A stretch of 64,000 nucleotides of DNA. Source: Cryobacterium sp. GrIS_2_6 (GTDB lineage: Bacteria; Actinomycetota; Actinomycetes; Actinomycetales; Microbacteriaceae). Numbering within the stretch: position 1 is the first letter of the stretch; the number at the start of each line of letters is the position of its first letter. Under the pieces are notes generated by a model that was given only the letters and a program-made list of their open reading frames with translations, was not told the origin of the DNA and made no database searches. The stretch is from contig NZ_JAXCHP010000001.1 of assembly GCF_035984545.1 (NCBI RefSeq), positions 2,542,001 to 2,606,000 on the forward strand. Direction: 5' to 3'. Of this stretch, positions 5,353 to 29,491 are shown in pieces. The position numbers were made by a program, and so were the translations under genes.

Positions 5353-5430
5353 ATCTTTCGATGGATCGATTCTATATTTTTCAGTTATAGATCCCGGCTG
5401 TTATGCCGGGGTTGTTCTCGACCGTACGTC

Positions 5431-5450
5431 GAGAACCACATAGTGGACGC
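5431..5450 (-). other. 3' half of the 23S processing stem
   Basis: On the transcript this reads GCGTCCACTATGTGGTTCTC. It is complementary to 8743-8724 in the 16S-23S spacer apart from one wobble pair and one mismatch over 20 bases. The two halves bracket 23S and form the expected RNase III processing stem. Confidence 0.75.
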
Positions 5451-5484
5451 TTGCAGCTTATTCAAACTGGTGTGTTATCAAATT

Positions 5485-8605
<3,121 letters not shown>

Positions 8606-8723
8606 CATGAGTTTGAATCGATTAAGAATCGTAAAACTTTCGTCTCACGATCGAAATTGACCAATGATCTATAAATAGATCTTTGTAATTTGCAGTCCGA
8701 AGACTGTCAAATTTAAGATGCTC

Positions 8724-8743
8724 GCGTCCACTGTGTAGTTCTC
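8724..8743 (-). other. 5' half of the 23S processing stem
   Basis: On the transcript this reads GAGAACTACACAGTGGACGC, pairing with 5450-5431 downstream of 23S. It is the upstream strand of the RNase III stem that excises pre-23S rRNA. Confidence 0.75.
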
Positions 8744-8838
8744 AAAGTACGGGCGGTACCCTCACCCAGCCACGATTGATGTGACTGAGAAAAGGTCCAG
8801 AGAAACAGTCCAACCAGGCAAAACCCAGTCGTTCCGGT

Positions 8839-8861
8839 CCCTCAGGACCCAACAGCGTGCA
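8839..8861 (-). other. 3' half of the 16S processing stem
   Basis: A transcript segment containing TGCACGCTGTTGGGTCC is complementary, with a few wobble pairs, to the leader segment at 10799-10777 upstream of 16S. Together they form the stem that brackets pre-16S rRNA. Confidence 0.7.
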
Positions 8862-9047
8862 TATACGTCTCCTTACGCAACCCGACCTTTCCAACGAGGC
8901 ACCGCAAGCGGTACCAGGCGTACTGGATCAAGAAGCGAACTCCTCGTATCAATGTCAATGTTCCACCCATGAGCGCCATCGAAGAACATTCGTCTTCGTA
9001 TGGCTTGGCAGTGTTACTCCGCTGTATACAGACGGCACTGCTGTGCT

Positions 9048-10573
<1,526 letters not shown>

Positions 10574-14518: not shown

Positions 14519-15919
14519 CTAGCGCGGGGGGCGCAGGAAGCGCACGGCGCGGAGCGGCGCACCGAGCATCCGGGCCCGCACGGCGGGATCGAGCCGGACG
14601 GCCGACCCTGCGAGAACGATGACGAGAGCGGCCGTGATCGCCCAGGTGAGCTCGAGCGAAGGCAGGATCTGCCGAAGGGTGAGTGCGAGCGGGATGCCGA
14701 GCCACTCCCAGCGACCGCTGAGCGCGACGAACGGCAGCAGCAGCAGCGCGTACCACGGGTACCGCGGGCTCAGGATGAGCAGGGTGCTGCCGATCATCAC
14801 GAGCTGGCCGAGCCAGGGCCGGTCGGGATCGGTCCTCCAGAACACGAGCGCCGCAATGATCACGAGCAGGCCGCCCGCGACGAAGATCGCGGCACCGCCG
14901 GGGGCCACGAGCGAGACGAGCGCGAAGCGTTTGCCGTTGTCGTAGCCCTCCTCGCTGAGATAGCCGGGCAGGTAGCCGAGCACGCCGATCCCGGTCGTGA
15001 GCACGTACGGCACGTAGAGCGCGAAGAACGTGACGACCGCGGCGAGGCCGACCTTCCAGCCCTGCCTGCGGAGCATCGCCGGGGCCGCGATCACGGGGAC
15101 GAGCTTCACGGCGATCGCGATTCCGAGGGCGATGCCGCCCCGCCAATACCGGGCCCGGGTGACGAGGAGCGCCGCGGCGAGGGTGAACACCACGCCGAGC
15201 TGGTCGACATGCGAATTCGTGATCGCCTCGGAGGCCACGAGCGGGCACCACGCCCAGTACGCGGCGAACCGCGGGTCGATGCCGCGGCGCCGCATCCCGG
15301 CGAGCAGCAGCACGGTCGTTCCGAGGCTGAGCACCAGCCCGCCGAGTTGCAGCGGCCAGTAGGTCGCCGTCGGCGGCACCAGAAAGCGGATGCCCGCAAA
15401 GTAGAGCTCCGCCGCCGGCGGGTAGATCGTCGGGACGGTCGGCCGGTTGAGCGCGGTGCAGAGCACCGCGTCCGAGGCGGTCTTGTGCGTGACCACGATG
15501 CGCTGGCCCTGGCAGGTCTCCGGCACCGTACCCGACGGCACCGTCGCCGGGAACAACCACTCCGGGCGAAGGGAGTCGAGCCGGTCGTCGGCCGGGACGT
15601 AAGCGTACGGCAAGATCCCGGCGTTCTGCACGATGCCGTCCCAGGCATACCTCGCCGAGTCGGTGCTCGTATTCGGCGGCCCGATCATCGCCGCGACCCC
15701 GATGCCGAGTGACCCGGCGAGCACGAGCACCACCACCGCCCGCCCGCGCACCCCGCGCAGCAGGAACACGGCGCCGGCGAACAGCACCCAGAGGGCCCCG
15801 GTGCAGACCAGGAGGGGGACCGTGTCCCGCGTCGGTTGGAAGAGCGAGAAGACCAGTACGCAGTACCCGGTCAGTGTCGCACTCGCGGCCAGGAGGAGGG
15901 AGATGATCGTAATGCGCAC
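14519..15919 (-). CDS. Multi-pass membrane glycosyltransferase (GT87/DUF2029-like)
   Basis: 466 residues from the GTG at 15919 (MRITIISLLLAAS). About ten to twelve membrane segments, an extracytoplasmic loop after the third segment (STDSARYAWDGIVQNAGILP) and an acidic/aromatic motif region fit a polyprenyl-phosphate-mannose dependent GT-C mannosyltransferase such as those in GT87. The donor and acceptor are unknown. A much longer frame upstream to 16594 overlaps the divergent molybdoenzyme gene and was rejected. It is divergent from the membrane molybdoenzyme gene with 117 bases between the starts. Confidence 0.65.
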   Translation of the reverse strand: MRITIISLLLAASATLTGYCVLVFSLFQPTRDTVPLLVCTGALWVLFAGAVFLLRGVRGRAVVVLVLAGSLGIGVAAMIGPPNTSTDSARYAWDGIVQNAGILPYAYVPADDRLDSLRPEWLFPATVPSGTVPETCQGQRIVVTHKTASDAVLCTALNRPTVPTIYPPAAELYFAGIRFLVPPTATYWPLQLGGLVLSLGTTVLLLAGMRRRGIDPRFAAYWAWCPLVASEAITNSHVDQLGVVFTLAAALLVTRARYWRGGIALGIAIAVKLVPVIAAPAMLRRQGWKVGLAAVVTFFALYVPYVLTTGIGVLGYLPGYLSEEGYDNGKRFALVSLVAPGGAAIFVAGGLLVIIAALVFWRTDPDRPWLGQLVMIGSTLLILSPRYPWYALLLLPFVALSGRWEWLGIPLALTLRQILPSLELTWAITAALVIVLAGSAVRLDPAVRARMLGAPLRAVRFLRPPR

Positions 15920-16036
15920 GTGGCCATCCTGTCGGAGTTCCGCGGCGAGCGCCGCAGAATCCCGGTTCGGAGAGCCGAACGGACCCATCCCGTCACGGAA
16001 CCGTAAGGTGTCGACCCGCCCGCGCGCATCCGCTGG

Positions 16037-17419
16037 ATGGTCCAATGGAACATGCGCCAAGTGATGTACGAAGCCCAGCGAGCGCTGGCCTCCCCCGTGC
16101 GAAACCCGCGGTTGGCGACCGTGATCGGTCGGCTGCTCGGGCTCGCCTTCGTGCTGTGCTTCGGCACCGGGCTGTACAGCCATTTTCTGCAGGAGCCGCT
16201 GCCGGGCATGCACTTCGCGACCCGGCCGGAGCTGCTGTACCAGTTCACCCAGGGCACCCACATCATCGCGGGCATCGCCTGCTTCCCGCTGCTGCTCGCG
16301 AAGCTGTACGTCGTCTTCCCCGACCTGTTCCAGCAGCCGCCGGTGAAATCGTTCCTCAATGTCCTCGAACGCGCGTCGATCGCCCTGTTCGTGGGCGCCT
16401 CGCTCGTGCAGATCACGATCGGCCTGCTCAACACCTACCAGTGGTACCCGTGGCCGTTCCCGTTCCGGGAGACGCACTTCGCGCTCGGCTGGGTGCTGAT
16501 CGGATCGCTCGCCCTGCACATCGGCATCAAGCTGCCCATCATCGCCCGGGTCTGGCGCAAACAAGCCGACGATGGCTCCGGCGACGACGATCACCTGACG
16601 GATGCCGTCGCCCGCGACCGCGCGGCGATGCCAGAGGCCGTTCGCCTGTTCGGTTCGAGCCGCCCGACCGGGGTCACCGGCCGGCTGCTCGCCTGGATCG
16701 ACGCGACACCGGGCCTTCGGGCGGACGCCACTGCGGCACGCGCGCCGTCAGGGCCCGACACAGGATCCGACGCCGCTCCCCGGGACGACACGGGCGACGC
16801 AGCGCGCACGGCTCGCACGCACCTCAGCCGGCGCGGCTTCCTCACGACGGTCGGGGTGAGCGTCGGCACTGTCGTCGTGCTGACCGCCGGGCAGACGGTC
16901 GCCCCGCTTGACGCGGTCAATGCCTTCGCACCGCGGAAGAAGGGCGTCGGTCAACAGGAGGTGCCGGTCAACCGCACCTCGAAGCAGGCAGATGTGGCCG
17001 CGGACGCCCTCGCGGCCGGCTGGGTGCTGACGGTGGCGCACGCCGGGGTGGAGCGCAGCTTCAGCCGGTCCGAACTCCTCGCCATGCCCCAGACCGAGGT
17101 CGAGCTGCCGATCGCCTGCGTCGAGGGCTGGAGCCAGCTGGCGCGGTGGCGCGGGGTTCGCTTGAGCGAACTGGCCGATCTGGTGTCGGCGGATGCCGCG
17201 GCATCCTTTCGCCTGACCAGTCTCGAGAAGAAGGGCGGGTACCGCCAGACCACGATGGGGTCGGAGTACGTGCGCGACCCGCTCACGCTCGTCGCTCTCG
17301 AGCTCAACGGGGAGACCCTCGACCTCGAGCACGGCTACCCGGCCCGGATGATCGCCCCCGGGCGGCCCGGGGTGCTGCAAACCAAATGGCTGAGCCGGAT
17401 CGAGGCGATGGACGCATGA
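16037..17419 (+). CDS. Cytochrome b-like membrane domain fused to sulfite-oxidase-type molybdopterin domain
   Basis: 460 residues. Residues 25-165 form four membrane helices with candidate haem ligands His75, His147 and His161 (also His49, His59), like b561/hydrogenase-type cytochromes. A soluble linker follows (about 166-262). Then comes a twin-arginine-like motif (LSRRGFLTTVGVSVG, about 264-280) with a fifth helix, and an oxidoreductase molybdopterin-binding domain (about 305-460) whose molybdenum-ligand Cys is Cys361 in PIACVEGWS. An extracytoplasmic redox reaction feeding or drawing on the quinone pool through the haem domain is the natural reading; the substrate is unknown. The TGA overlaps the next ATG. 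Confidence 0.85.
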   Translation: MVQWNMRQVMYEAQRALASPVRNPRLATVIGRLLGLAFVLCFGTGLYSHFLQEPLPGMHFATRPELLYQFTQGTHIIAGIACFPLLLAKLYVVFPDLFQQPPVKSFLNVLERASIALFVGASLVQITIGLLNTYQWYPWPFPFRETHFALGWVLIGSLALHIGIKLPIIARVWRKQADDGSGDDDHLTDAVARDRAAMPEAVRLFGSSRPTGVTGRLLAWIDATPGLRADATAARAPSGPDTGSDAAPRDDTGDAARTARTHLSRRGFLTTVGVSVGTVVVLTAGQTVAPLDAVNAFAPRKKGVGQQEVPVNRTSKQADVAADALAAGWVLTVAHAGVERSFSRSELLAMPQTEVELPIACVEGWSQLARWRGVRLSELADLVSADAAASFRLTSLEKKGGYRQTTMGSEYVRDPLTLVALELNGETLDLEHGYPARMIAPGRPGVLQTKWLSRIEAMDA

Positions 17420-17913
17420 GTACCGCACGCACTGCAGGGAACCGAAGCGTCGAAGCATCCGGAGCCGGCGAACTGGGGCCGGCGCTCCGCGTCACGCGGA
17501 TCGTGCTGATCACGCTCGGCCTCGCGGGCCTCGCCTGGGGCGCCTACGTACTGGTCGACAGCGTGAAGCCCGCGCGGATTCCCGGTATCGTCCTGTGGAT
17601 GGGCGCGGCGATCGTGCTGCACGACGGGGTGATCTCGCCGCTCGTATTCTTCTGCGGGATCCTGCTGCGCCGCGCCGGCCACCGGATCAGCGGAACGGTC
17701 ATCCTCGTCCTGCAGGGAGCGCTCGTGGTCGGCTCCGTCATGAGCCTCATCGTGGTGCCGTTGCTGATCGCCCAGTCGCGCGGCACCGGCAACCCGACGG
17801 TGTTGCCCCTCGACTACGGCGTGAACTTCGCCGTGTTCTGGGCAGCTGTCGCCGTCGTGACCGCGGCCGTGTCGTTCGCGCTCTACGCGCGGGGCCGGCG
17901 GCGGCTGCGCTGA
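17416..17913 (+). CDS. Small membrane protein coupled to the molybdoenzyme
   Basis: 165 residues, ATG overlapping the molybdoenzyme stop (ATGA). Four membrane helices are visible (LITLGLAGLAWGAYVLV, GIVLWMGAAIVLHD with LVFFCGILL, ILVLQGALVVGSVMSLIVV, NFAVFWAAVAVVTAAVSFAL). I do not recognise a named family. The coupling suggests it assembles with or serves the upstream enzyme. The gene is convergent with the methyltransferase gene. Confidence 0.75.
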   Translation: MSTARTAGNRSVEASGAGELGPALRVTRIVLITLGLAGLAWGAYVLVDSVKPARIPGIVLWMGAAIVLHDGVISPLVFFCGILLRRAGHRISGTVILVLQGALVVGSVMSLIVVPLLIAQSRGTGNPTVLPLDYGVNFAVFWAAVAVVTAAVSFALYARGRRRLR

Positions 17914-18072: not shown

Positions 18073-18831
18073 CTAGGCGTGGAGGAGGCGGGCGAACCAG
18101 CGCCCGTCCAGGCGCCAGTCGTGCGCGACCCGGAGCCCCGCGTCGGCGGCATGGCCGGCGAGGGCGTCGACGCCGACCTCCGCCCAGGGGAAGACGTCGC
18201 TGAGGAGTCCGGAGGCATCCTCGAGCCGGCCGTCGTAGCGTTCATTGCGGGCCGGGTCGTGGCTGACCTCGACGAGGAGCGCGCCCCGGGGTGCGAGCAG
18301 TTCTGCGCAGCGGGTCAGGAGCGCGGTCACGTCGCCGCCGATGCCGATGTTCCCGTCGACGAGGAGCGCGCCGGCCCAGCCGCCCTCGAGGGGCATCGGG
18401 TCGAAGACGCTGCGCTTGAGCACGCTGAGGCCGGCATCGACGGCGATCCGCACGGCGGTCGGCGAGACGTCGATTCCGAGCGCGGACAGGCCGCGGTCCA
18501 TCGCGGCCCGCACCATCCGGCCGGGGCCGCAGCCGATGTCGAGGACGGGACCGGTCAGGCCGTCGAGCAGGCGCTGGTCGGTGTCATCGGCGTCGGCGCT
18601 CCACCGGGCGGCGTCCATGGTTGCGGCGGCGGTGAGGCCGCCGTCTCGGGATCGGCGGAGGTAGAGCACGTTGTCGGCGTTGCGGAGCGCGGCCGCATAG
18701 GGTTCCGCCCCGCCGGCGCCGAAGGTCGCGGGGGCGAGGTCGAGGGCGGATGCCCGCTCGCCGGGGAGGTTGTCGAGGCGATCGGGTTCGAGGATGTCCC
18801 GTTCGAGGAGGCCGGCGACCTGCACGTTCAT
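18073..18831 (-). CDS. Class I SAM-dependent methyltransferase
   Basis: 252 residues. The Rossmann motif I is VLDIGCGPGRMV near residue 96, followed by LSALGIDVSPTAV (motif II acidic end) and a post-motif GALLVEVSHDP. The ATG overlaps the DUF2064 stop (ATGA), making it the third gene of a coupled GT2-DUF2064-methyltransferase unit. The acceptor is not predictable from sequence; the genes around it suggest a glycosylated small molecule or lipid. Confidence 0.85.
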   Translation of the reverse strand: MNVQVAGLLERDILEPDRLDNLPGERASALDLAPATFGAGGAEPYAAALRNADNVLYLRRSRDGGLTAAATMDAARWSADADDTDQRLLDGLTGPVLDIGCGPGRMVRAAMDRGLSALGIDVSPTAVRIAVDAGLSVLKRSVFDPMPLEGGWAGALLVDGNIGIGGDVTALLTRCAELLAPRGALLVEVSHDPARNERYDGRLEDASGLLSDVFPWAEVGVDALAGHAADAGLRVAHDWRLDGRWFARLLHA

Positions 18832-19574
18832 GCGCGCACCGGAATTCCGGTGGCGACAGTGCCGGTCGCGGCGCGATCGGCGGGGCGGGCGTCAGTGCGG
18901 GCTGCCACAGCGTCGGGGAGCAGGGCGGCGAGGGTGCGGGCGAAGCGCCCGTCCGGAACCGTGGCGGCAACGGAGTGCGCGTCGGCGATCGTGTCGACAT
19001 CGGTGAGCACGGGCAGGTGGCGCACCCGGAGGCCGGCCTCCTGCAGGCGATCGAGCTGCCGGGCCCCGGTGTCGTCCATCGACATCGCGACGCCGCGAAT
19101 CAGGTCCCCGCGCTGGGAGTGACCGTTCCGGGAGTGACCGCGGCTTGACCCTCCGCGCGTCGCGGCGAGCGCGAGCGCCCAGAAGCCGCCGTCGTCCGCG
19201 AGGCCGAGCCAGGCATCCGTGTCGTCTGACCAGTCGGTGAAGACCGGCGCGAGCAGCTCGGTGGTCACCTGCGGGGTGTCCATGCCGATCAGGACGGTCG
19301 GTTCGTCGAGCCCGTCGAAGATGGCGGCGAGGCGCTCGTCGAGACTTCCGGCGACCTGGGGCAGGATCTCGAACTCCGCGGCCAGGCGCGGCGGGGTGAC
19401 CCCGTCGAAGGCGAGGATGCGGCGCGAGGCCGGGAGGGCGAGCGCTGCGGTCAGGGTGTCGTCGAGGCTCGCGGCGGCGAGCTCGGCGGCCTGCTCGAAG
19501 GAGAGCGCCGGGTGCAGGCGGGTCTTGACCCGGCCGGGCAGGCACTCTTTGGCGATCACGACGAGGGCCGTCAT
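18828..19574 (-). CDS. DUF2064 (TIGR04282-type) glycosyltransferase-like protein
   Basis: 248 residues. The N-terminal VIAKECLPGRVKTRLHP matches the nucleotide-binding start of DUF2064/TIGR04282 proteins; GMDTPQ near residue 97 and DDGGFWALAL are the family's other markers. The fold is GT-A-like and resembles nucleotidyltransferases. TIGR04282 proteins accompany a GT2 (TIGR04283) in arsenosugar-type and other clusters, as here. The segment RGGSSRGHSRNGHSQRGD after DDGGFW is an unusual insertion rich in Ser/Arg/Gly. Both ends overlap neighbours by ATGA-type junctions. Confidence 0.8.
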   Translation of the reverse strand: MTALVVIAKECLPGRVKTRLHPALSFEQAAELAAASLDDTLTAALALPASRRILAFDGVTPPRLAAEFEILPQVAGSLDERLAAIFDGLDEPTVLIGMDTPQVTTELLAPVFTDWSDDTDAWLGLADDGGFWALALAATRGGSSRGHSRNGHSQRGDLIRGVAMSMDDTGARQLDRLQEAGLRVRHLPVLTDVDTIADAHSVAATVPDGRFARTLAALLPDAVAARTDARPADRAATGTVATGIPVRA

Positions 19575-20239
19575 TTCCGGGCCTCGCGCAGCAGGGCGGA
19601 CATGTCACCGATCGCGGTCACGGTTCCGCGGATCGTTCCGGTCAGCTTGCTGCGACCGACCCGCGGCGAATAGGCGGTGTCGACCTCGCGGATGCTCCAT
19701 CCCGCGTCGGACGCACGGAGGAACATCTCGAGCGGGTAACCGCTGCGTCGGTCCTGGAGGTCGAGGGACAGCAGCGCCGGGCGCCGGGCGGCCCGCATGG
19801 GGCCGAGGTCATGTATGTTCACACCGGTTATTCGGCGCAGGCGCCAGGAAAGACTGGAATTGGCCAGGCGGGCGTGCAGCGGCCAGGATCCGCGGGTCGT
19901 CGGGCGGCGGCGGCCGAGCACGAGGTCGGCATCACCGGCGAGGATCGGGCCCACGATGCGCGGCAGTTCGGCAGGGTCCATCGAGGCATCGGCGTCGCAG
20001 AACGCGACGATCGGGGCGGTCGCGGCGAGGAGCCCCGCGTGGGCGGCGGCGCCGAAGCCGCGGCGCTCCTCGTGCACGACGAGGGCGCCCGCCGCTGCGG
20101 CGATCTCGGCCGACCCGTCGGTCGACCCGTTGTCGACGACGATCGCCCGGTAGCCCTCCGGCAGGCGCGACAGCACCCATGGCAGCGCGCCGGCCTCGTT
20201 GAGGCACGGGAGCACGAGGTCGACCTGGATCGGAGTCAT
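19571..20239 (-). CDS. Family 2 glycosyltransferase
   Basis: 222 residues. GT2 motifs: VDLVLPCLNEAGALPWVL at the start, IVVDNGSTDGSAEIA, the DxD in CDADASMDP, and SGYPLEMFLRASDAG. The closest functional class is the TIGR04283/dolichyl-phosphate-mannose-like cytoplasmic GT2. It is the first gene of the coupled unit with DUF2064 and the methyltransferase and is divergent from the response regulator gene. Confidence 0.87.
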   Translation of the reverse strand: MTPIQVDLVLPCLNEAGALPWVLSRLPEGYRAIVVDNGSTDGSAEIAAAAGALVVHEERRGFGAAAHAGLLAATAPIVAFCDADASMDPAELPRIVGPILAGDADLVLGRRRPTTRGSWPLHARLANSSLSWRLRRITGVNIHDLGPMRAARRPALLSLDLQDRRSGYPLEMFLRASDAGWSIREVDTAYSPRVGRSKLTGTIRGTVTAIGDMSALLREARK

Positions 20240-20359
20240 GTTCCGACCCTAAAGGGGCGCCGACCCGGAACAGGGCCGAGAACATTACGGACTGAGGAAG
20301 AACACCGGGAGCAGCCCCGCGGCGTTCCCGCCCGGCCGGGGCCACCGTATCCTGAGATC

Positions 20360-21205
20360 GTGACAGCCCCTTCCACTCCCGCCGCCCCGGTTCTCCCCGC
20401 GCCCCCGGAGGAACGGCGCATCCTCGTGGTCGACGACGACCCGACCGTGCTCGAGATCGTCTGCCGGTACCTCCGCGCCGCCGGGTTCCTGGTCGACGAG
20501 GCCCCGGACGGGCTGAGCGCACTCCGCCTCGCCGAGGAGAAGCGGCCGCACCTCGTGGTGCTCGACCGGATGCTTCCGCTGCTGGACGGGATCGAGGTGT
20601 GCCGCCGGGTGCGCAGCACCTGGGCCATCCCCGTGATCATGCTCACCGCCCTCAACCAGGAGGACGACCGCATCGACGGCCTCGAGGCCGGTGCGGACGA
20701 CTACCTTGCCAAGCCGTTCTCGCCGCGCGAGCTCGTGCTGCGGGTGCAGGCCGTGTTGCGGCGCACCGGCCAGGCCGCCGCCCAGGCTGCCGCGCAATCC
20801 GCCGGACAGGGCGCGGGCGAGGCACCGGGCCTGCCGACCGTGCCGCTCGCGATCGGCGACTTCACCCTCGACACCGCCGCGCACGAACTGCGCCTGCACG
20901 GTACGCCGCTCGTGCTCACGGTGCGCGAATTCGACCTGCTCTCCTACCTGCTCCGGCACCCTCACACGGTCCTCGGCCGTGAGGACCTGCTCCGCTCGGT
21001 GTGGGGGTGGGAATTCGGTGACCTCTCGACCGTGACCGTGCACGTGCGGAGGCTGCGGGAGAAGATCGAGGCCGACCCGGCGCATCCGCTGCTGTTGCAG
21101 ACGGTGTGGGGCGTCGGCTACCGGTTCGACCCTGTCCCGCTCGGCCCGACCGGCAGCCGCGACGCACCGGATTCCGCCACCGCAGCAGACGGGACGATCT
21201 CGTGA
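20360..21205 (+). CDS. OmpR/PhoB family response regulator
   Basis: 281 residues from GTG at 20360. A receiver domain covers about 20-135 with the phospho-acceptor Asp69 (LVVLDRMLPLLDG), acidic pocket DDD at 25-27 and conserved Lys in LAKPFSPREL. An Ala/Gln/Gly-rich linker (QAAAQAAAQSAGQGAGEA) joins it to a winged-helix DNA-binding domain with LTVREFDLLSYLLRHP and STVTVHVRRLREKIE. It is transcribed with the histidine kinase (GTGA overlap). Position between two glycan/nucleoside units suggests it controls them. Confidence 0.92.
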   Translation: MTAPSTPAAPVLPAPPEERRILVVDDDPTVLEIVCRYLRAAGFLVDEAPDGLSALRLAEEKRPHLVVLDRMLPLLDGIEVCRRVRSTWAIPVIMLTALNQEDDRIDGLEAGADDYLAKPFSPRELVLRVQAVLRRTGQAAAQAAAQSAGQGAGEAPGLPTVPLAIGDFTLDTAAHELRLHGTPLVLTVREFDLLSYLLRHPHTVLGREDLLRSVWGWEFGDLSTVTVHVRRLREKIEADPAHPLLLQTVWGVGYRFDPVPLGPTGSRDAPDSATAADGTIS

Positions 21206-22341
21206 CGACCGAAGTGCTCGTCATCGTCGCGCTGAACGCCCTCGCGTGCGCGGTCGTCACCGGCGCGCTCGGCCTGCTCGCGCTGCGGATGATGAAGCGG
21301 TCCTCGTTCGTTGTGCAGCTCATGCTCGTCGCCCTCGCGGCGATCGTCTCCGTCGTCGGGGGGATGTCGGCGGTCGCCACCCAGATGTACGTCTCGACCC
21401 ACGACCTCGGCGTCTTCTACTCGGTCGCCGCGGTCGCCGGACTCGTGTCGCTCGTGATGGCCGCGCTCCTCGGGCGCACCCTCGTGCGCGACAGCAGGCA
21501 CCTGCGCAGCGCGGCCGAACGCCTCGGCCGCGGCGAATCGGTCGCGGCCGCCGGCGACGCCGCGGCCCCGCGGCACAGCACGACCGAGTTCAGCGACCTC
21601 GCCGGGGAACTGGCCGCGACGGGGGCCCGCCTCGCTGAGTCCCGGGCCCGCGAACGACGCGTGGAGGAATCCCGACGCGAACTGATCGCGTGGATCTCCC
21701 ACGACCTGCGGACCCCGCTCGCCGGCATCCGCGCCATGGCGGAGGCGCTCGAGGACGGGATGGTCGAGGACCCCGCCCGGTATTACCCGCGGATGCGCGA
21801 CCAGGTCGACCGGTTGAGCGGGATGGTCGACGACCTCTTCGAACTGTCGCGGATCCACTCAGGGACGCTGCGCCTCGCGCTCGAGCCGGTCGCGCTCTAC
21901 GACCTGATCAGCGACACCGTCGCGGGTTTCGGACCCGTCGCGCAGGCGAAGTCCCTCGACCTGCGATTCGCGGGCGAGATGGGGCTGACGGTCCTCGCCG
22001 ATCCGCGCGAACTGTCCCGCGTGGTCGGGAACCTCGTGATGAACGCGATCCAGCATTCGCCGTCCGGGAGCCCGATCACGGTGTCGGTGCGCGAACGGGG
22101 GGACGGCGGGGCCGTGATCTCCGTCGAGGACGCGGCCGGCGGCATCCCGGAACAGGACATCGACCGGGTGTTCGAGGCCGGCTGGCGGGCGAGCGAGCCG
22201 CGCACCCCCGGCGGGGCTGGGCTCGGCCTCGCCATCGTGCAGGGCATCGTCACCGCGCACCAGGGTGAGGTGATCGTGCAGAACGTGCCGAACGGATGCC
22301 GTTTCGACGTGCTGCTGCCGCGGCGCGCGGTCGCCGTCTAG
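21202..22341 (+). CDS. Sensor histidine kinase
   Basis: 379 residues, GTG overlapping the regulator stop. Two or three membrane helices in the first 80 residues leave only a very short external loop (TQMYVSTHDLGVF), so it may sense a membrane or intracellular signal. A HAMP-like segment follows, then HisKA with the phospho-acceptor in WISHDLRTPLAG near residue 172. The HATPase domain has N-box NLVMNAIQHSP and a G-box GGAGLGLAIVQGI. It is convergent with the epimerase gene, 27 bases apart. Confidence 0.92.
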   Translation: MTTEVLVIVALNALACAVVTGALGLLALRMMKRSSFVVQLMLVALAAIVSVVGGMSAVATQMYVSTHDLGVFYSVAAVAGLVSLVMAALLGRTLVRDSRHLRSAAERLGRGESVAAAGDAAAPRHSTTEFSDLAGELAATGARLAESRARERRVEESRRELIAWISHDLRTPLAGIRAMAEALEDGMVEDPARYYPRMRDQVDRLSGMVDDLFELSRIHSGTLRLALEPVALYDLISDTVAGFGPVAQAKSLDLRFAGEMGLTVLADPRELSRVVGNLVMNAIQHSPSGSPITVSVRERGDGGAVISVEDAAGGIPEQDIDRVFEAGWRASEPRTPGGAGLGLAIVQGIVTAHQGEVIVQNVPNGCRFDVLLPRRAVAV

Positions 22342-22368
22342 GCATCCGCTCGCGCCAGCGCCCGGAAG

Positions 22369-23433
22369 TCAGCGGCGGACGGCGGCCCGGAGGGGGGCCG
22401 TGGCGAAGGCGCGCATGCCGTCCTCGAAGGTGACGGCGGGCATCCAGCCGAGCTCGGTGCGGAGCCGCTCGGAGGACGCGGTGATGTGCCGCACGTCACC
22501 GAGCCGGTACTCCCCCGTCGTGACGGGGTCGGGGCCGCCAGCCGCGCGGCTGAGCGCCCCGGCCATGTCCCCGATCGTGTGCACGACCCCCGAGCCCACG
22601 TTGAACGCCCGGAACAGGGCGGCGGGGGCGTCCGCGGTGTGCTCGAGCGCGGCGAGGTTGGCGGATGCGACGTCGGCGACGTGCACGAAGTCGCGGCGCT
22701 GCCTGCCATCTTCGAAGACGCGCGGTGCCTCTCCGCGTTCGAGGGCCGACCGGAACAGGGACGCGACCCCGGCGTACGGCGTGTTCTGCGGCATCCCCGG
22801 CCCGTAGACGTTGTGGTAGCGGAGGGCGATCGCGCGCCCGCCCGTCGAGCGGGCCCAACTGCTCGCGAGGTACTCCTGGCCGAGCTTGCTCGAGGCGTAG
22901 ACGTTGCGGGGGTCGAGCGGGTCGTCCTCGGTGACGAGCAGCGGTTCGAGCGGCTCGCCGGTCTCCGGGTCCAGCGGGTCGAACCGGCCGGCGGCGAGGT
23001 CGGTCTCCCGGCGCGGGCCGGGCCGGGTGAAGCCGTGCGAGCCGCGGTAGCTGCCTTCGCCGTAGACGACCATGGACGAGGCGAGCACGAGCCGGTCGAT
23101 GCCCGCGGTGGTCATGCCCGCGAGGAGCACGGCCGTGCCGAACTCGTTGCTGCGGACGTAGTCCGGCGCGTCGGAGAAGGCGACGCCGAGGCCGACCTTC
23201 GCGGCCTGGTGGCAGACCGCGTCGACACCGGAGAGGGCCAGGTCTACGGTCGCCGGGTCCGTCGTGTCGCCGACGAGCAGGTCGACCCGCTCATCGATCG
23301 TGGGCAGGCCGCCGTGCACGTCTGGGCGCAGGGAGTCGAGCACACGCACGTCCCAGCCGTGAGTGAGCGCCTGGCTCACGAGGACTCCGCCGATGAACCC
23401 GGCGCCGCCCGTGACGAGCAGCCGGGGGCTCAC
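22369..23433 (-). CDS. NAD-dependent epimerase/dehydratase
   Basis: 354 residues of the extended short-chain dehydrogenase family. Rossmann motif TGGAGFIGG at residue 8, catalytic Ser in ASSMVVYGEG, and catalytic YxxxK in YASSKLGQEY. A nucleotide-sugar substrate is usual for the family but not proven here. The insert FTRPGPRRETDLAAGRFDPL before the YxxxK is longer than in GalE. It is translationally coupled to the upstream phosphorylase (ATGA). Confidence 0.87.
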   Translation of the reverse strand: MSPRLLVTGGAGFIGGVLVSQALTHGWDVRVLDSLRPDVHGGLPTIDERVDLLVGDTTDPATVDLALSGVDAVCHQAAKVGLGVAFSDAPDYVRSNEFGTAVLLAGMTTAGIDRLVLASSMVVYGEGSYRGSHGFTRPGPRRETDLAAGRFDPLDPETGEPLEPLLVTEDDPLDPRNVYASSKLGQEYLASSWARSTGGRAIALRYHNVYGPGMPQNTPYAGVASLFRSALERGEAPRVFEDGRQRRDFVHVADVASANLAALEHTADAPAALFRAFNVGSGVVHTIGDMAGALSRAAGGPDPVTTGEYRLGDVRHITASSERLRTELGWMPAVTFEDGMRAFATAPLRAAVRR

Positions 23434-24524
23434 CGGGCAGGCCCGGGTTCGGTCGTCGGCGCGGGCACAGGAACGGGATGCGGAACGGGAGGAGTGCCAG
23501 GGGCCGGCCGGAGAATCGGTTTTCGCTCGGTGCCGGGCTCCGTTTCCGTGTCCGTTGCCGTCTCCGTCGAGAGCCGGGTGGGCTGCCCGGGCCGGACCGG
23601 TCGCACGGGCCGGTCCAGCACGGCCCGGACCAGCTCGGGATCGATCAGGGTCCGCGAGGCGTAGCCGTCGGGAATGCCCCGGAGGATGCCGTCGATGGCC
23701 GCGAGGATCCGGGGCTGCGCCGCGGCCAGCCGAGCGAAGACGAGCTCGGCCGTGACGGCATCCGTCTCGGTAGTCTCGGGCAGGGCGGACTCGGGCAGGT
23801 GCGCCTCGAGAGCGGATGCCGCCGCGTTCGCGCCGGGTTCGGCGGGGACGAGTCCGGCGTCCGCATCGGTGACGAAGGAGAGGTTGACGGTTCCGATGCC
23901 CAGTTCGGATGCGAGCACGACCTCGGGGTACTGGGTCATGTTGACGATATGGGCGCCGGCCGCGCGGAACCAGAGGGACTCGGCCCGGGTGGAGAACCGG
24001 GGGCCCTGGATCACGACGACGGTCCCGGTGGGCGCGAATCGCTCGCCGAGTGCGTCCAGGGCGGCGACCGCGGTGCGTCGGAGCACCGGGTCGAAGGGGT
24101 CGGCAGCGGCGAGGTGCGCGACGACGCCTTCGTCGAAGAAGGTGTCGGCGCGGCCGCTCGTGCGGTCGATGAACTGGTCGGTGACGACGAGCAGCCCCGG
24201 CGGGTACTCGGGGCTGACGCCGCCGACGGCGGAGGAGGAGATGATCGCACGGACACCGAGGGAGGCGAGCGCCCAGATATTGGCGCGGTAGTTGATCCGG
24301 TGCGGTGCCTCGGTGTGCCCCGCTCCATGCCGGGGCAGGAATGCGACCCGACGGCCGGCGCGCTCGCCGACCGTGATCGGCGCGGAGGTCGGCCCATACG
24401 GGGTGTCGAGGATGATCGAGGTGACGGTGCCGGCGTCGAAGAGCCGGTACAGTCCGGATCCGCCGATCACGGCGATCTCCACCGGGGCATGCGCGAGTGG
24501 TTGCGCGGGAGTCTGCTCGGTCAC
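23430..24524 (-). CDS. S-methyl-5'-thioadenosine / purine nucleoside phosphorylase family protein
   Basis: 364 residues from GTG at 24524, with GAGGAG as ribosome binding site. Family-2 phosphorylase motifs: GGSGLYRLF near residue 19, FLPRHGAGHTEAPHRINYRAN (phosphate and nucleoside site), SSSAVGG, and NMTQYPEVVLASELG. The catalytic core ends near residue 300. The last 55 or so residues are a Pro/Thr/Glu-rich tail (TETATDTETEPGTERKP) not found in usual MTA phosphorylases. It would split MTA or a related nucleoside with phosphate. Its coupling to an epimerase is unexpected for housekeeping methionine salvage. Confidence 0.85.
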   Translation of the reverse strand: MTEQTPAQPLAHAPVEIAVIGGSGLYRLFDAGTVTSIILDTPYGPTSAPITVGERAGRRVAFLPRHGAGHTEAPHRINYRANIWALASLGVRAIISSSAVGGVSPEYPPGLLVVTDQFIDRTSGRADTFFDEGVVAHLAAADPFDPVLRRTAVAALDALGERFAPTGTVVVIQGPRFSTRAESLWFRAAGAHIVNMTQYPEVVLASELGIGTVNLSFVTDADAGLVPAEPGANAAASALEAHLPESALPETTETDAVTAELVFARLAAAQPRILAAIDGILRGIPDGYASRTLIDPELVRAVLDRPVRPVRPGQPTRLSTETATDTETEPGTERKPILRPAPGTPPVPHPVPVPAPTTEPGPAR

Positions 24525-24687: not shown

Positions 24688-26169
24688 TCAGTGCGTGTAG
24701 ACGCGGATCGACTCGGCGAGCGGGCCCGGCGGGCGCACCGGGAACGAGGCGACCATGCCGGCATCCGCATAGCCGACCGACGACACCGTCTCGGAGCCGC
24801 CCGACACGATGTACCGCGTCGACGCGAAGAGCGGCAGGGCTCCGGCCGCACCGGCCGCGACCGTCACGCTGCCGGATGCACCGTTCTCGGCGGTCGCCGT
24901 GTAGGTCACGTCCTTGGTGCCCTGGTTCAGCAGGTTGAGCAGCGGCGAGGGTCCTGGCGCCGTAACGACGGCGAAGTCGCCGGTGAGCGCGGCGGAGGAT
25001 GCGAACCAGGCGAAGTCGCGGCCGTTGGTACCGGTCGCCGAGCCGAGGGCCGAGGCCACGACGGGCTGGTCGCTCGACACGGTGAGCGAATAGCTGCCGA
25101 CGGCGAGTCCGGAGAGCGGCACGTCCGTCGCGAGTCCGGGCTGGAGGGTGACCTCGAGGGAGGTACCCGCGGCCTGGCCTCCCTCGCTCATAACGCCGAT
25201 CTGCACGGTCGCCGCCGTGTCGCCGGGGGCGAGCAGACGCAGAGAGGGTGTGTCACTCGCGACCCCTCCCGCGTCGCTTCCGGCGTCGTCTGCTGGAAGG
25301 TTCTCGATGCGCAGGCCGGCGATGCTCTGCTCGAGGCTCGGGTCGACGGATGTCCCGAGCAGGTCGACCCCGCCGGTCGCGAGGCCGCGCACGATGCTCT
25401 GCTGCAGGGTGGCCACCACCTGGCCGCCGTGGGTCGTCACGTGCACGACGGGCGAGCGGAGGTTCGGCGCGAGGCCGGCGAGCGAGACGACGCGCTGGGC
25501 GCCGGGCTGGACGAGTATCCCGGTGGAGCCTGGCGCGGGGACCCGGCCCGATTCGCCGAAGACGTCGAGGTCGACGGTTGCAACGACCGTTGTCGGATTG
25601 CTGAGCAGCACGAGGGTCGTGCGGCCGACATCCGTCGACCCGCCGACGAGCCAGGATTCGCCGGTGGCCTCGCCGCAGGCCGCGACGGCGAGCCCGCCGA
25701 GGACGGCCTCCGCCGCGACGGACTGGGACTGGCTGCCGGCAACGAGCGGTGCCGTGGACGCGCCCTTCGCGACGGGGATGTTGAGCTTGACGGGGGCGCC
25801 GTCCGTGGTCTTGCGGTTGTCGACGGCGCTCAGCAGGCTCGCGGACGGTGCGCTCCATGCGCCCGCGGGGACCGCGGCCTTGGCTGCGGTCGTGGCGGGA
25901 GCCCAGGCGCCGGATGCGGTGTCCGGGCGCCCGAGCGAGCTCGCGGACTTCGCCTGGGTCGAGTCCTCTGCGAGGGTGAGCAGCGGACCCGGGCAGACCC
26001 GGACCTGCTCGCTCGGAACCGGCGCGACGGCGAGGTAGGCCGGCGCGGTGCCGAAGGCGGGCCAGGGAACGACGACGGCGGCCGCTCCGAGCACGCCGGC
26101 GACGCCGAGCACGCCGAAGGCGATGAGGAACCGTGCACCGGTCCGGGCGATGGCGCGCTTACCTGGCAT
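24688..26169 (-). CDS. DUF5719 family secreted/anchored protein
   Basis: 493 residues starting MPGKRAIART, with GGAGG 9 bases upstream; the start lies inside the end of the giant GT gene (11-base overlap). One N-terminal hydrophobic segment (FLIAFGVLGVAGVLGAAAVV) acts as signal anchor. The rest is a beta-rich, Ala/Val/Ser/Gly-rich extracytoplasmic region with few motifs. DUF5719 genes in actinobacteria regularly follow the large GT2 membrane protein next to whiB, as here, so it probably works with that protein in the envelope. Confidence 0.8.
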   Translation of the reverse strand: MPGKRAIARTGARFLIAFGVLGVAGVLGAAAVVVPWPAFGTAPAYLAVAPVPSEQVRVCPGPLLTLAEDSTQAKSASSLGRPDTASGAWAPATTAAKAAVPAGAWSAPSASLLSAVDNRKTTDGAPVKLNIPVAKGASTAPLVAGSQSQSVAAEAVLGGLAVAACGEATGESWLVGGSTDVGRTTLVLLSNPTTVVATVDLDVFGESGRVPAPGSTGILVQPGAQRVVSLAGLAPNLRSPVVHVTTHGGQVVATLQQSIVRGLATGGVDLLGTSVDPSLEQSIAGLRIENLPADDAGSDAGGVASDTPSLRLLAPGDTAATVQIGVMSEGGQAAGTSLEVTLQPGLATDVPLSGLAVGSYSLTVSSDQPVVASALGSATGTNGRDFAWFASSAALTGDFAVVTAPGPSPLLNLLNQGTKDVTYTATAENGASGSVTVAAGAAGALPLFASTRYIVSGGSETVSSVGYADAGMVASFPVRPPGPLAESIRVYTH

Positions 26170-29100
26170 TGTTCGGGTCCTCCTGTCCACTCGGACGGTC
26201 GGCAGGCTCGACGGGGTCCGTCGCCTTCTCCCGGTCGGGTGACGCGGCCGGTTCTTTGGGCGGAGCAGTGCCGGGGGCGACGTGCTCGGTAGTCTCGCCT
26301 GCGGTCACGTCGGCAGGGTAGTCCTCGGTCTCGTGGGCGTGGCCCGAAGTGAGGGCGAGGTCGGACGAGCGCTCCAGTTCCGCGGCGTGCGCGAGTTCGA
26401 CAGCGGCGGCGAGCTCGCCGGCCTCCGCGGCCTCCGCGGCTTCGGCGGCTTCCGCAGACTCGATCGCCTGGGCGGCCGGGGTGCCCTCTTCCGGAACGAT
26501 CGCGCCGGCCTTCACGCTGCGCCGCAGTGCGGCACGAGCCTCGGAGCGGGCAGACCGCGCCTCGGACTTCGCACTGCGTTCTTCGCGGTGGAGATCCCGT
26601 GCCTCGGCCTTGCGGTCCTGGGTGTCCGAGCGGGCCGAGCGGCGCATGGCGTCGCGGTTCGCCTGGCGCACTGCTTCGGGGCCTGCCCCGGTCGGGATCG
26701 ACAGCAGCAGGGCTGAGCCGACCGTGATCGCGGCAAGAAGCAGGGCGGCGAGAGAGAAGACTCCCCCGGCGTGGGCCGGGACCTCGCTCGCCGTGACACC
26801 GGCAGCAGACGCCGGCCCGTCATGGCGCCAGAGCCGCCCGTACGCGGTGTCCCCGACGGGAACGAGCGCTGCCTCGCCGTCGAGCGCGGTCGTCGCCCTC
26901 GCAAGGGTCTCCGTGGCCGCGACGCTTGCCGCCGCGGTACCTCTGCCGGTGTCGGTGAGGGCGGCCGGCCGCAGCAGCACGAAGCGGATGCCGAGGTCGG
27001 CCAGTCCGGCCGAGGCATCCAGTCCGCTGCGCGAGGCCAGGTTTCCCGCGAGCGTGGCGAGTTCCTTGTCCGCCGCGGAGAGCGTGGTCGTGGTGTTGAC
27101 GAGGGTGCTCTGCTCGTTGAGGGTGGTGCCCGCGCCGCGTACGATCGTGGCGAGGATGCCGCCATTGGACTGCGGGACGATTTCGAGGGTGCCGACCCGG
27201 GCATCCGTCTGCGCTTCTGCCGTCACGAAGGCGGGCTGGGTGCGGTCGCTGCCCTCGTGGACGGCGCTCAGCTCGAGCGGGAGTGCTCCGGCGAGCGGGA
27301 CGACGGCGACAGCGAGAAGGACGGTTGCGGCCACGGCGGGGGCGACGGCGAAGCGGCGGAACTCGCGCAGGGCGAAGATCACGGCGCCGACGAGGCCGAG
27401 CCAGTACAGGCTGAGTCCGGAGCCGGGCCAGATGCTGACGCTCGCGGCACCCGTCGTCGTGAGGCTCAGCTGTGTCGCGGCGATCGCGGTGCCGGCGCCG
27501 AGCAGGGCTGTCAGGACCGCGACGCTCGCGTTGCGGATGCTGGGCAGGAACAACGAGAGTGCGGCGAGGATCGCGAGCGGGGCGAACAGGACCGGGATGA
27601 TCCAGGACAGCGGAAGGCTTTGCAGGGCGGGGGCCTGACCCAGCAGCGTGCTCCAGCCGCCGAAGTCGCCGGTCGGGAAGCCGAGCAGCAGCTGCCAGTC
27701 CGGGGCGGGGGTGCTCGGCACCGGCACCCCGGGGTCGGCGAGGAGCGCGAGCCACGATCCGCGGAGGCCCTGGTCCAGGATCAGCGGGAGCGCGAGGGCG
27801 AGGGCGGGCAGTGGGATGCCGATGAACCGGGCGATGCCGCGTCCGCTGGCGACCGAGCAGAGCAACCACAGGATGAGCAGCGCGGGCGTGAGCGAGGGGG
27901 CGCAGAACAGCACGGCGGCGAAGAGCAGGGAGGCTGTCGCCGACGCGGACCACGACCGGCCGGCGGAATAGCCGGCGAAGAACAGCCAGGGCAGCAGCAG
28001 GTGCGCGAGGATCGCGGAGGGGCGACCAGCCGAGAACGCTGTGAGGAAGGTCGGGGCGAGCACCCACAGTGCTGCGGCGGTGAAGCGGAGGTACCCGCGG
28101 TCGGTCAGGCGGGTCGCCGCGAGCCAGGCGCCGAGTGCCGCGAGTGGGAGGGCGACGAAGTAGAGCAGCACGAGCGAGTACGACGGGGCCCAGAACGTGA
28201 GCGAGCCGAGCACGGCGAGCACGGCGGCGAAAGGATCCGCGGCGCCGACGAAGCCGAGGCCGAGGTCGCGCCAACCGTAGCCGACGCTCGCCCAGAGCCC
28301 GGCCGGGGTGCTCGACAGCGGCAGCAGTCCCCCGCCGGCGAGGTTCCGCGCGCCGAGCAGTGCGGCGAACATGATGATTCCGACGAGCGCAGCCGCGAGC
28401 ACGGTCCAGGCGCCGCCGCTCGCGAAGAAGCGGATCTCCGGCCGGTCGGCGCCGAGGCCGACGAGCACCGCTTCGCGCTTGAGGGCGTGCCTGCGGCGGA
28501 CTTCGGCATTCGTCACGCGCAGGGACGCGATCGACCCCCAGCCGAGCGTGCGGGTCCCGGCGAGTCGACGGCGGGCGTTGTGCACCCGGGAGCCGCTGAA
28601 CGCGGTGCGGAATGCGGCCGAGAACTCGCCGGGAATCGCGCCGGGCTCCTTCTGCAGCAGCGCTCCGATGGAGCGGAAGAAGGCGAACGGCACGAGCGCG
28701 ATCCAGTGCAGGGGGATCAGCCACCCCGCGGAGTAGACGAGGCGCCGGTGCAGCTGTGCGGTCCTGGCCACCCGGAGTCGCTTGCGGCGGGCCCGACCAC
28801 GCGAGGACCCGCTGAGCCCGGCGACACCGTCGCCCGCCGAGGCGACGCGCGCCGCGGCGACGACGGACACCCGGCGGCCGGACAGGCGCACACGCACGCA
28901 GAAGTCGAGGGCGTCGTCTGCGGACGGCAGGCCGGGGTCGAAACCGCCGAGCTGGTTCCAGACGCTGTGGCGCACGAGCATTCCGCCGGCGTCGACGGCG
29001 AGCACGTCGCTCATGCCGTCGTGCTGGCCCTGGTCGAGTTCGCTCTCGACGAGGGTCACGGTCGCCCCGCCCGGCGTCATCGACAGGCCGACGTCGTGAA

Positions 29101-29491
29101 TGTAGTCGTGGGCACGCCAGTCCATGATCTTGGGTCCCGCGACGGCGACGGAGGGTGCGATCTCGAGTTCGCCGAGCAGCGCTTCGAGCGCGCCGGGTTC
29201 GGGGGCACTGTCCTGGGCGAGCAGCCAGAGCATCTCGCTGTCGGATTCCGGCGGCGCCATCACGCGCACGGCGGCCGCGATCGCCTGCCCGAAGGTCAGG
29301 TCGGAGTCGGCGGAGATGAAGTGCGTCGGACCGTGCGCGGCGAGGAGCTGGGCCGTCGCGTCGCTGGATCCGCAGTCGACGGTGATGACGACATCCGGCT
29401 GACGGGTTTGCCGACTCAGAGCCTCGAGAGTGCGCTCAAGGTGTTTCGCGCCGTTGCGGGCGACAAGGATGGCTGTGACTCGTGCATGCAT
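26159..29491 (-). CDS. Giant GT2 glycosyltransferase with multi-pass membrane region
   Basis: 1110 residues. An N-terminal GT2 domain (about 1-240) has ILVARNGAKHLERTLEAL, ITVDCGSSDATAQLL and the acidic LAQDSAPEPGALEALL. A membrane region with about a dozen or more helices follows (about 260-940, with an extracytoplasmic part near 740-920). The C-terminal 160 residues are a charged cytoplasmic tail rich in Arg/Glu/Ala (SARSEARAALRRSV, AEAAEAAEAAEAGEL) that may form a coiled coil. This architecture, next to whiB and DUF5719, is conserved in actinobacteria; a role in cell-wall polysaccharide synthesis is inferred. The acceptor is unknown. Confidence 0.85.
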   Translation of the reverse strand: MHARVTAILVARNGAKHLERTLEALSRQTRQPDVVITVDCGSSDATAQLLAAHGPTHFISADSDLTFGQAIAAAVRVMAPPESDSEMLWLLAQDSAPEPGALEALLGELEIAPSVAVAGPKIMDWRAHDYIHDVGLSMTPGGATVTLVESELDQGQHDGMSDVLAVDAGGMLVRHSVWNQLGGFDPGLPSADDALDFCVRVRLSGRRVSVVAAARVASAGDGVAGLSGSSRGRARRKRLRVARTAQLHRRLVYSAGWLIPLHWIALVPFAFFRSIGALLQKEPGAIPGEFSAAFRTAFSGSRVHNARRRLAGTRTLGWGSIASLRVTNAEVRRRHALKREAVLVGLGADRPEIRFFASGGAWTVLAAALVGIIMFAALLGARNLAGGGLLPLSSTPAGLWASVGYGWRDLGLGFVGAADPFAAVLAVLGSLTFWAPSYSLVLLYFVALPLAALGAWLAATRLTDRGYLRFTAAALWVLAPTFLTAFSAGRPSAILAHLLLPWLFFAGYSAGRSWSASATASLLFAAVLFCAPSLTPALLILWLLCSVASGRGIARFIGIPLPALALALPLILDQGLRGSWLALLADPGVPVPSTPAPDWQLLLGFPTGDFGGWSTLLGQAPALQSLPLSWIIPVLFAPLAILAALSLFLPSIRNASVAVLTALLGAGTAIAATQLSLTTTGAASVSIWPGSGLSLYWLGLVGAVIFALREFRRFAVAPAVAATVLLAVAVVPLAGALPLELSAVHEGSDRTQPAFVTAEAQTDARVGTLEIVPQSNGGILATIVRGAGTTLNEQSTLVNTTTTLSAADKELATLAGNLASRSGLDASAGLADLGIRFVLLRPAALTDTGRGTAAASVAATETLARATTALDGEAALVPVGDTAYGRLWRHDGPASAAGVTASEVPAHAGGVFSLAALLLAAITVGSALLLSIPTGAGPEAVRQANRDAMRRSARSDTQDRKAEARDLHREERSAKSEARSARSEARAALRRSVKAGAIVPEEGTPAAQAIESAEAAEAAEAAEAGELAAAVELAHAAELERSSDLALTSGHAHETEDYPADVTAGETTEHVAPGTAPPKEPAASPDREKATDPVEPADRPSGQEDPNNAR

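What the first reader, a model, noticed from the sequence alone, without database searches (positions are those of the whole stretch)
18073..24524. Unassigned gene set: GT2, DUF2064, methyltransferase, two-component system, epimerase, MTA-type phosphorylase
Three translationally coupled units sit together: GT2-DUF2064-methyltransferase, response regulator-kinase, and phosphorylase-epimerase, beside the cytochrome b/molybdopterin fusion and its coupled partner. Directly seen: every junction inside the units is an ATGA/GTGA overlap. Known: TIGR04282/DUF2064 and GT2 pairs occur with arsenosugar or related clusters, where a nucleoside phosphorylase acts on a 5'-deoxyadenosyl intermediate. Inference: these genes make a modified sugar or nucleoside-derived glycan precursor, oxidised outside the membrane, under dedicated sensing. 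No radical SAM enzyme is present, so it is not the known arsenosugar pathway.
Basis: partly seen in the sequence, partly recalled or inferred. Interest (0 to 1): 0.72.

Follow-up and report, generated by a model that had tools for sequence, protein, structure and literature searches.

The report
Methylthio-sugar surface decoration gene cluster
This stretch of a Cryobacterium-like genome holds a gene set, found in many actinobacteria, that most likely turns a sulfur-containing waste product into an unusual sugar placed on the cell surface, related to the methylthioxylose cap known from the tuberculosis bacterium but with extra, unexplained enzymes.

Summary
In 150 Microbacteriaceae genomes the epimerase and the GT2 are found in the same 41. 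The MTA-type phosphorylase is found in 34, all inside that set and within 441 bp of the epimerase; the other seven all match MtnK and MtnA, an alternative route to methylthioribose-1-phosphate. The cluster recurs in mycobacteria, Nocardia, Rhodococcus, Gordonia, Williamsia and Nocardioides. Its slow-growing mycobacterial form corresponds to the MtxS/MtxT (methylthioxylose) genes of M. tuberculosis, by a gene order that I recall. So the missing frame is an MTX-type pathway, extended here by a GT87 glycosyltransferase in place of MtxT, a methyltransferase, a sulfite-oxidase-fold molybdoenzyme fused to cytochrome b with a coupled 4-helix partner, and a two-component system with a conserved operator-like site. 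Slow growers lack these extras. Not shown: the sugar, its sulfur, the acceptor, and what the methyltransferase and molybdoenzyme do. Against: two Rhodococcus-group genomes match neither precursor route, and no spermidine synthase was found in this genome. New variant of a known kind.

The parts
14519..15919 (-). GT87-family GT-C glycosyltransferase; stands where an MtxT-type GT-C stands in other clusters; likely the extracytoplasmic transferase
   Evidence: PF09594 43.2 bits, cut-off 25; GT87 and MtxT type together in 0 of 140 loci
15992..16006 (-). possible second response-regulator site (TTACGGTTCCGTGAC, one mismatch) between GT87 and the molybdoenzyme gene
   Evidence: weak: 3 of 25 homologous regions, window included, have a site with at most one mismatch, shuffles mean 0.26
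16037..17419 (+). b-type cytochrome fused to a sulfite-oxidase-fold molybdopterin domain; C361 taken for the Mo ligand (recalled); invariant H75, H147, H161 in the membrane part
17416..17913 (+). four-helix membrane partner of the molybdoenzyme, no known family
   Evidence: ATGA overlap; such an ORF follows the molybdoenzyme gene in 73 of 74 loci examined, 59 with a 4-base overlap; model pLDDT 86.3, no significant fold match
18073..18831 (-). class I SAM-dependent methyltransferase with conserved DGNxGIGG motif; substrate unknown
18828..19574 (-). DUF2064 / CofC-like nucleotidyltransferase; likely activates the sugar-1-phosphate
   Evidence: PF09837 57.7 bits; AKxxxPGxxKTRL and GMDTPQ motifs conserved in an alignment of 126
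19571..20239 (-). GT2, polyprenyl-phosphate-sugar synthase type; syntenic counterpart of the mycobacterial cluster GT2 (MtxS position)
20285..20299 (+). operator-like site TTACGGACTGAGGAA (consensus TKACGRAN4KGAC, one mismatch) in the GT2/response-regulator promoter
   Evidence: 37 of 40 such regions, window included, have it with at most one mismatch; shuffles mean 1.85, maximum 5
20360..21205 (+). OmpR-family response regulator
21202..22341 (+). sensor histidine kinase with membrane helices and, by eye, no large outside domain
22369..23433 (-). SDR-family epimerase characteristic of this cluster; proposed ribo-to-xylo epimerase
23430..24524 (-). MTA-type phosphorylase; proposed source of methylthioribose-1-phosphate
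   Evidence: PF01048; best profiles are MTA phosphorylases but just under their cut-offs

Best explanation
A methylthioxylose-type (MTX-type) pathway. Proposed steps, all inferred for this organism: the phosphorylase cleaves 5'-methylthioadenosine to methylthioribose-1-phosphate; DUF2064 activates it with a nucleotide; the SDR enzyme inverts a ring carbon (ribo to xylo); the GT2 puts the sugar on a polyprenyl phosphate; it is flipped; the GT87 enzyme transfers it outside to an envelope glycan. The methyltransferase acts in the cytoplasm on a sugar intermediate. The cytochrome b/molybdoenzyme and its membrane partner exchange electrons with the quinone pool and act outside, most likely on the sugar's sulfur (thioether/sulfoxide). 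The two-component system controls the GT2/regulator promoter. Shown here: co-occurrence, clustering, complementarity of two precursor routes in one family, mutual exclusion of two GT-C types, a conserved operator-like site. Estimates: MTX-type lipid-linked pentose pathway 0.8; sugar carries the methylthio group 0.6; molybdoenzyme works on its sulfur 0.4.
For: Epimerase and GT2 found in the same 41 of 150 family genomes, on one contig in 41 of 41, within 10 kb in 39. Phosphorylase in 34 of those 41 and 0 of the other 109, within 441 bp of the epimerase in 34 of 34. The 7 cluster genomes without it (4 genera) all have MtnA and MtnK matches; of the 34 with it, 1 has an MtnA match (Fisher 3.6e-7; by genus 3e-4). 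Same set in named mycobacteria, Nocardia, Rhodococcus, Gordonia, Williamsia, Nocardioides; GT2, DUF2064 and methyltransferase each in 19 of 20 loci picked class-wide. MtxS makes MTX-P-C50 and MtxT transfers MTX to LAM caps (PMC8780516 figure legend). MTX and its sulfoxide MSX both occur in M. tuberculosis LAM (PMC8531672 passages). An SDR epimerase decides ribo or xylo in another lipid-linked pentofuranose system (PMC11127046 passages). GT87 and MtxT type together in 0 of 140 loci, with 8 changes on an epimerase tree. Operator-like site in 37 of 40 regions.
Against: Two cluster genomes (Rhodococcus sp. Leaf247, Rhodococcoides trifolii) match neither the phosphorylase nor MtnK. The own genome gives no spermidine synthase match (PF01564), so its MTA source is unknown; MtnN was not searched in the seven genomes with MtnK. 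The phosphorylase is in the fetched locus in only 57 of 80 named and 6 of 20 class-wide loci, and outside this family it also occurs without a cluster epimerase (for example G060 and G082). The MTX antibody S4-20 did not detect Gordonia, Nocardia, Rhodococcus, Tsukamurella or four rapid-growing mycobacteria (PMC6258851 passages), although missing mannose caps may explain part of that. The phosphorylase scores just under MTA-phosphorylase cut-offs (281.3 of 306; 257.4 of 274.85). No M. tuberculosis sequence was compared; its gene order is recalled. No flippase identified. No chemistry was done.
Confidence: 0.65

Rival explanations
1. Same lipid-linked pentofuranose machinery, but the sugar carries no sulfur: the phosphorylase acts on 5'-deoxyadenosine (giving 5-deoxyribose-1-phosphate) or another nucleoside.
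For: No spermidine synthase match in this genome; MTA-type phosphorylases and MtnK/MtnA-like enzymes can also serve 5-deoxyribose (recalled), and five of the seven MtnA matches are under the MtnA cut-off; a plain xylofuranose made by a three-part system with an SDR epimerase is known (PMC11127046 passages).
Against: The slow-growing mycobacterial form of the cluster corresponds to the MTX genes (order recalled); the sulfite-oxidase-fold enzyme suggests sulfur chemistry.
Confidence: 0.22
2. The molybdoenzyme, partner and two-component system are a separate envelope redox module (for example repair of methionine sulfoxide in proteins) that merely sits in the cluster.
For: MsrP and sulfite-dehydrogenase profiles match weakly; E. 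coli MsrPQ is triggered by reactive chlorine species (PMC9302797, abstract start in the listing; control by a two-component system is recalled); methyltransferase and molybdoenzyme vary partly apart: 82 both, 13 methyltransferase only, 12 molybdoenzyme only, 21 neither, of 128 loci with epimerase and GT2.
Against: It is in the fetched locus in 36 of 40 Microbacteriaceae, 41 of 80 named and 18 of 20 class-wide loci.
Confidence: 0.2
3. Housekeeping MTA salvage beside unrelated glycosylation genes.
For: The phosphorylase family is common in the phylum: 198 of 246 genomes match at E 1e-3 (weak purine-phosphorylase hits included).
Against: Found in 0 of 109 family genomes without the epimerase; no MtnA match in the own genome.
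Confidence: 0.04
4. An arsenosugar-type pathway.
For: TIGR04282 and TIGR04283 arsenosugar glycosyltransferase profiles match.
Against: Both under cut-off (91.4 of 134; 38.2 of 182); no radical SAM domain among the ten cluster proteins.
Confidence: 0.02

Closest known systems
Methylthioxylose (MTX) capping of lipoarabinomannan: MtxS (Rv0539) and MtxT (Rv0541c) from PMC8780516; Rv0535 phosphorylase, Rv0536 epimerase, Rv0540 DUF2064 and the gene order are recalled
   Same: Phosphorylase, SDR epimerase, GT2 and DUF2064 in one cluster; GT2 54-58% and epimerase 52-53% identical to those of four clusters from unnamed mycobacteria-like genomes
   Different: GT87 instead of an MtxT-type GT-C; added methyltransferase, molybdoenzyme/cytochrome b, partner and two-component system; acceptor in this organism unknown
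Three-component pentofuranose side-chain systems (Citrobacter youngae O1/O2)
   Same: Lipid-linked furanose donor, SDR epimerase choosing ribo or xylo, GT-C transfer outside (PMC11127046 passages)
   Different: The donor there is made from PRPP by a polyprenyl phosphoribose synthase; here a GT2 with a nucleotidyltransferase is proposed
MsrPQ and its two-component regulator
   Same: Molybdopterin domain of the sulfite oxidase fold with a haem membrane part, and a two-component system nearby (the last for MsrPQ recalled)
   Different: Below the MsrP cut-off; the cytochrome is of the b561/hydrogenase type and fused
Sulfite dehydrogenases SoxC, SorA, SorT
   Same: Fold of the molybdopterin domain
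   Different: Far below their cut-offs

Membership tests
MTX capping pathway | MTA phosphorylase in or supplying the cluster | tested here: inconclusive
   Gene present and linked, but 281.3 bits against a cut-off of 306 (NF005876) and 257.4 against 274.85 (TIGR01694)
MTX capping pathway | GT2 polyprenyl-phosphate-sugar synthase (MtxS) counterpart | tested here: met
   54-58% identity to the GT2 of four clusters from unnamed mycobacteria-like genomes with the same gene set; the M. tuberculosis protein itself was not compared
MTX capping pathway | MtxT-type GT-C transferase | tested here: not met
   GT87 instead; HHalign probability 0.3% between the two families; no MtxT match in the own genome, without positive control; the MtxT type is present in five other Microbacteriaceae loci (L003, L146, L155, L156, L157)
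MTX capping pathway | Product is methylthioxylose on mannose caps of LAM | not testable with these tools
   needs glycan chemistry
MsrPQ | MsrP equivalog cut-off | tested here: not met
   31.9 bits of 207
Sulfite dehydrogenase SoxC/SorA/SorT | Curated cut-offs | tested here: not met
   46 of 420, 27.5 of 600, 23.7 of 570
Sulfite-oxidase-fold molybdoenzymes | Fold of the molybdopterin domain | tested here: met
Arsenosugar pathway | TIGR04282/TIGR04283 cut-offs | tested here: not met
   91.4 of 134 and 38.2 of 182
Arsenosugar pathway | radical SAM partner in the cluster | tested here: not met
   no radical SAM domain in the ten cluster proteins; rest of the genome not searched
GT87 glycosyltransferases | PF09594 gathering score | tested here: met
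   43.2 bits, cut-off 25

The most novel reading that the evidence does not exclude
The full cluster, widespread in Actinomycetes, makes an undescribed envelope sugar: a SAM-derived methylthio pentose further altered by a dedicated methyltransferase and by an extracytoplasmic molybdoenzyme (for example a controlled sulfoxide or an S-methyl sulfonium), switched by its own two-component system. The methylthioxylose of slow-growing mycobacteria would be the simple product of a cluster that has lost these tailoring and control genes.
Probability: 0.35. Interest if true: 0.85.

Novelty: new variant of a known kind. Interest (0 to 1): 0.68.

Why it matters
Methylthioxylose is called the hallmark of M. 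tuberculosis LAM (PMC8531672 abstract) and serves as a diagnostic epitope (PMC6258851). If its pathway is a class-wide actinobacterial system with extra tailoring enzymes, the question of what this sugar is for becomes testable in harmless species, and the spread of the epitope can be predicted from gene content. The molybdoenzyme and its unknown membrane partner would be, to my knowledge, the first candidates for enzymes dedicated to sulfur redox chemistry on a surface glycan.
Full report
Observation. The genes and their 4-base overlaps are as described and the family labels hold. The nearest named epimerase is from Cryobacterium algoricola (95% identity). The system reaches further left than stated: the cytochrome b/molybdopterin fusion (16037-17419), its ATGA-coupled partner (17416-17913) and a divergent GT87 gene (14519-15919) travel with it. 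The right border is the phosphorylase start, since DUF5719 turned up in only 2 of 39 fetched family loci, both of the same genus.

Co-occurrence. In 150 Microbacteriaceae genomes drawn by the tool, the epimerase (E 1e-80) was found in 41 and the GT2 (E 1e-40) in the same 41. They share a contig in 41 of 41, with a gap of at most 10 kb in 39 and of 16 kb at most. The phosphorylase (E 1e-30) was found in 34 of the 41 and 0 of the 109 others, within 441 bp of the epimerase in 34 of 34. Among 40 fetched loci of that family (window not counted) the bit-score thresholds give GT2 38, DUF2064 38, molybdoenzyme 36, partner 35, methyltransferase 33, phosphorylase 33, GT87 27, MtxT type 5, regulator 11, kinase 8. 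The two loci without GT2 (L127, L128) have it 15-16 kb away, outside the stretch fetched. The two-component system is thus the least constant part in this family.

Precursor route. The seven cluster genomes without the phosphorylase (G271, G297, G317, G322, G365, G378, G383; four genera) all match MtnA (five of them under its curated cut-off) and MtnK (six over the cut-off, G271 under it). Of 34 phosphorylase-bearing cluster genomes one matches MtnA (Fisher 3.6e-7; genus level 3e-4), and 11 of 109 non-cluster genomes do. MtnK was run on 47 genomes only: the 41 cluster genomes and six MtnA-positive others, of which five matched. Besides the seven, cluster genomes G341 (over cut-off) and G254 (under it) matched and three had marginal hits near E 1e-4. 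Both routes give methylthioribose-1-phosphate (recalled enzymology; the nucleosidase MtnN was not searched), which points to it, or to 5-deoxyribose-1-phosphate, as the shared precursor. Against universality: of 23 genomes checked outside the family 21 have the phosphorylase, and the two that do not (Rhodococcus sp. Leaf247, Rhodococcoides trifolii) have no MtnK match either (0 of 6 genomes tried there). This genome gives no spermidine synthase match, while 11 of 14 control genomes do, so the source of MTA is open.

Breadth. One scan with an 11-row epimerase alignment whose first row comes from a mycobacteria-like genome returned the best 80 of 578 confirmed loci, with names: mycobacteria, Nocardia, Rhodococcus/Rhodococcoides, Williamsia, Gordonia, Nocardioides and others. 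GT2 is in 68 of the 80, MtxT-type GT-C in 67, DUF2064 in 66, phosphorylase in 57, methyltransferase in 43, molybdoenzyme in 41 (several loci are short contigs). In 296 genomes of the class 140 match the epimerase profile at E 1e-70; a few best hits lie at 247-290 bits and are probably other epimerases. Of these I picked 20 loci from 13 families: GT2, DUF2064 and methyltransferase in 19 each, molybdoenzyme in 18, kinase 14, regulator 13, GT87 8, MtxT type 9, phosphorylase 6.

GT-C replacement. Across the 140 loci GT87 is in 35, the MtxT type in 81, both in none, neither in 24 (some of the 24 are cut short). The two families show no profile similarity (HHalign probability 0.3%), and the type changes 8 times on a FastTree epimerase tree of 128 rows, 13 of them without a GT-C call. 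The simplest reading is that either enzyme does the final transfer.

Link to methylthioxylose. [quoted passage not shown] The order Rv0535-Rv0541c is recalled; no M. tuberculosis sequence was compared, and the name MtxT for the GT-C in the fetched loci rests on position and on its GT-C-like membrane character. The 14 R37-type named loci listed (for example M. gordonae, M. szulgai, M. persicum, M. colombiense, M. genavense) carry phosphorylase, epimerase, GT2, DUF2064 and MtxT-type GT-C but no methyltransferase, molybdoenzyme or two-component system. The 21 other mycobacterial loci listed there all have the methyltransferase, 17 the molybdoenzyme and 19 the two-component system. Species with names in the first group are slow growers and in the second rapid growers (recalled taxonomy).

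A fit with published serology. With the MTX-mannose antibody S4-20 as capture, PMC6258851 (passages) found signal for M. tuberculosis, M. bovis, M. gordonae, M. intracellulare, M. kansasii and, just over threshold, M. avium, and none for M. fortuitum, M. smegmatis, M. abscessus, M. chelonae, Gordonia bronchialis, Nocardia asteroides, Rhodococcus sp. or Tsukamurella paurometabola. This parallels reduced versus full clusters, but it is confounded: M. smegmatis carries phosphoinositol caps and M. chelonae none (PMC7502851 passage), and I did not check the cluster in those exact rapid-growing species.

Partner and control. A hydrophobic ORF of partner size follows the molybdoenzyme in 73 of 74 loci, 59 with a 4-base overlap and the others within -8 to +1 (the script looked only near the stop codon and filtered by length and hydrophobicity). 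It models as four helices (pLDDT 86.3) without a significant fold match. The GT2/regulator intergenic region carries TKACGRAN4KGAC with at most one mismatch in 37 of 40 loci, window included (shuffles mean 1.85, maximum 5). The pattern was derived from the same regions and many rows are related, so the figure overstates independence. In the window the site is 20285-20299.

Verdict. The finding is real and belongs to a known kind, the lipid-linked methylthio-pentose pathway, in a fuller form that I did not find described in the library I could search (listings). The sugar, the acceptor and the roles of the methyltransferase, molybdoenzyme and partner remain to be shown by experiment.

Noticed in passing
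window 41725-60122: A second glycan locus at lower GC (0.63-0.69 against about 0.72 in the cluster) with an O-antigen-ligase-like protein, several GT2 enzymes, a DUF7657/DUF7654 protein, a methyltransferase-GT2 fusion and an SDR enzyme.
   Followed up: no
window 24691-29491: DUF5719 protein overlapping a 1110-aa GT2; DUF5719 lies next to the cluster in two same-genus loci only.
   Followed up: partly
window 38197-40259: Rhodanese gene next to a pyridine-nucleotide disulfide reductase with a rhodanese tail.
   Followed up: no
window 5234-10573: 16S-23S-5S rRNA operon on the minus strand.
   Followed up: no
L003 10160-11621; L156 15804-16394: Molybdoenzyme fusion read in two frames in L003, and only a 197-aa piece picked up in L156: split genes or a frameshift, not resolved.
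   Followed up: partly
G297, G322, G383, G256: Two MtnK-like genes within about 10 kb of each other in each genome; one may serve another pathway.
   Followed up: no
L123, L125, L126, L130, L135, L138, L139, L140, L142: A further gene with weak (about 57-66 bits) similarity to the cytochrome b/molybdopterin fusion lies between GT2 and epimerase in these nine loci.
   Followed up: no
L010 6834-8492 and 4873-6861: R37-type (slow-grower) clusters carry two other genes in the middle; one is DUF7937, the other has no Pfam match.
   Followed up: no
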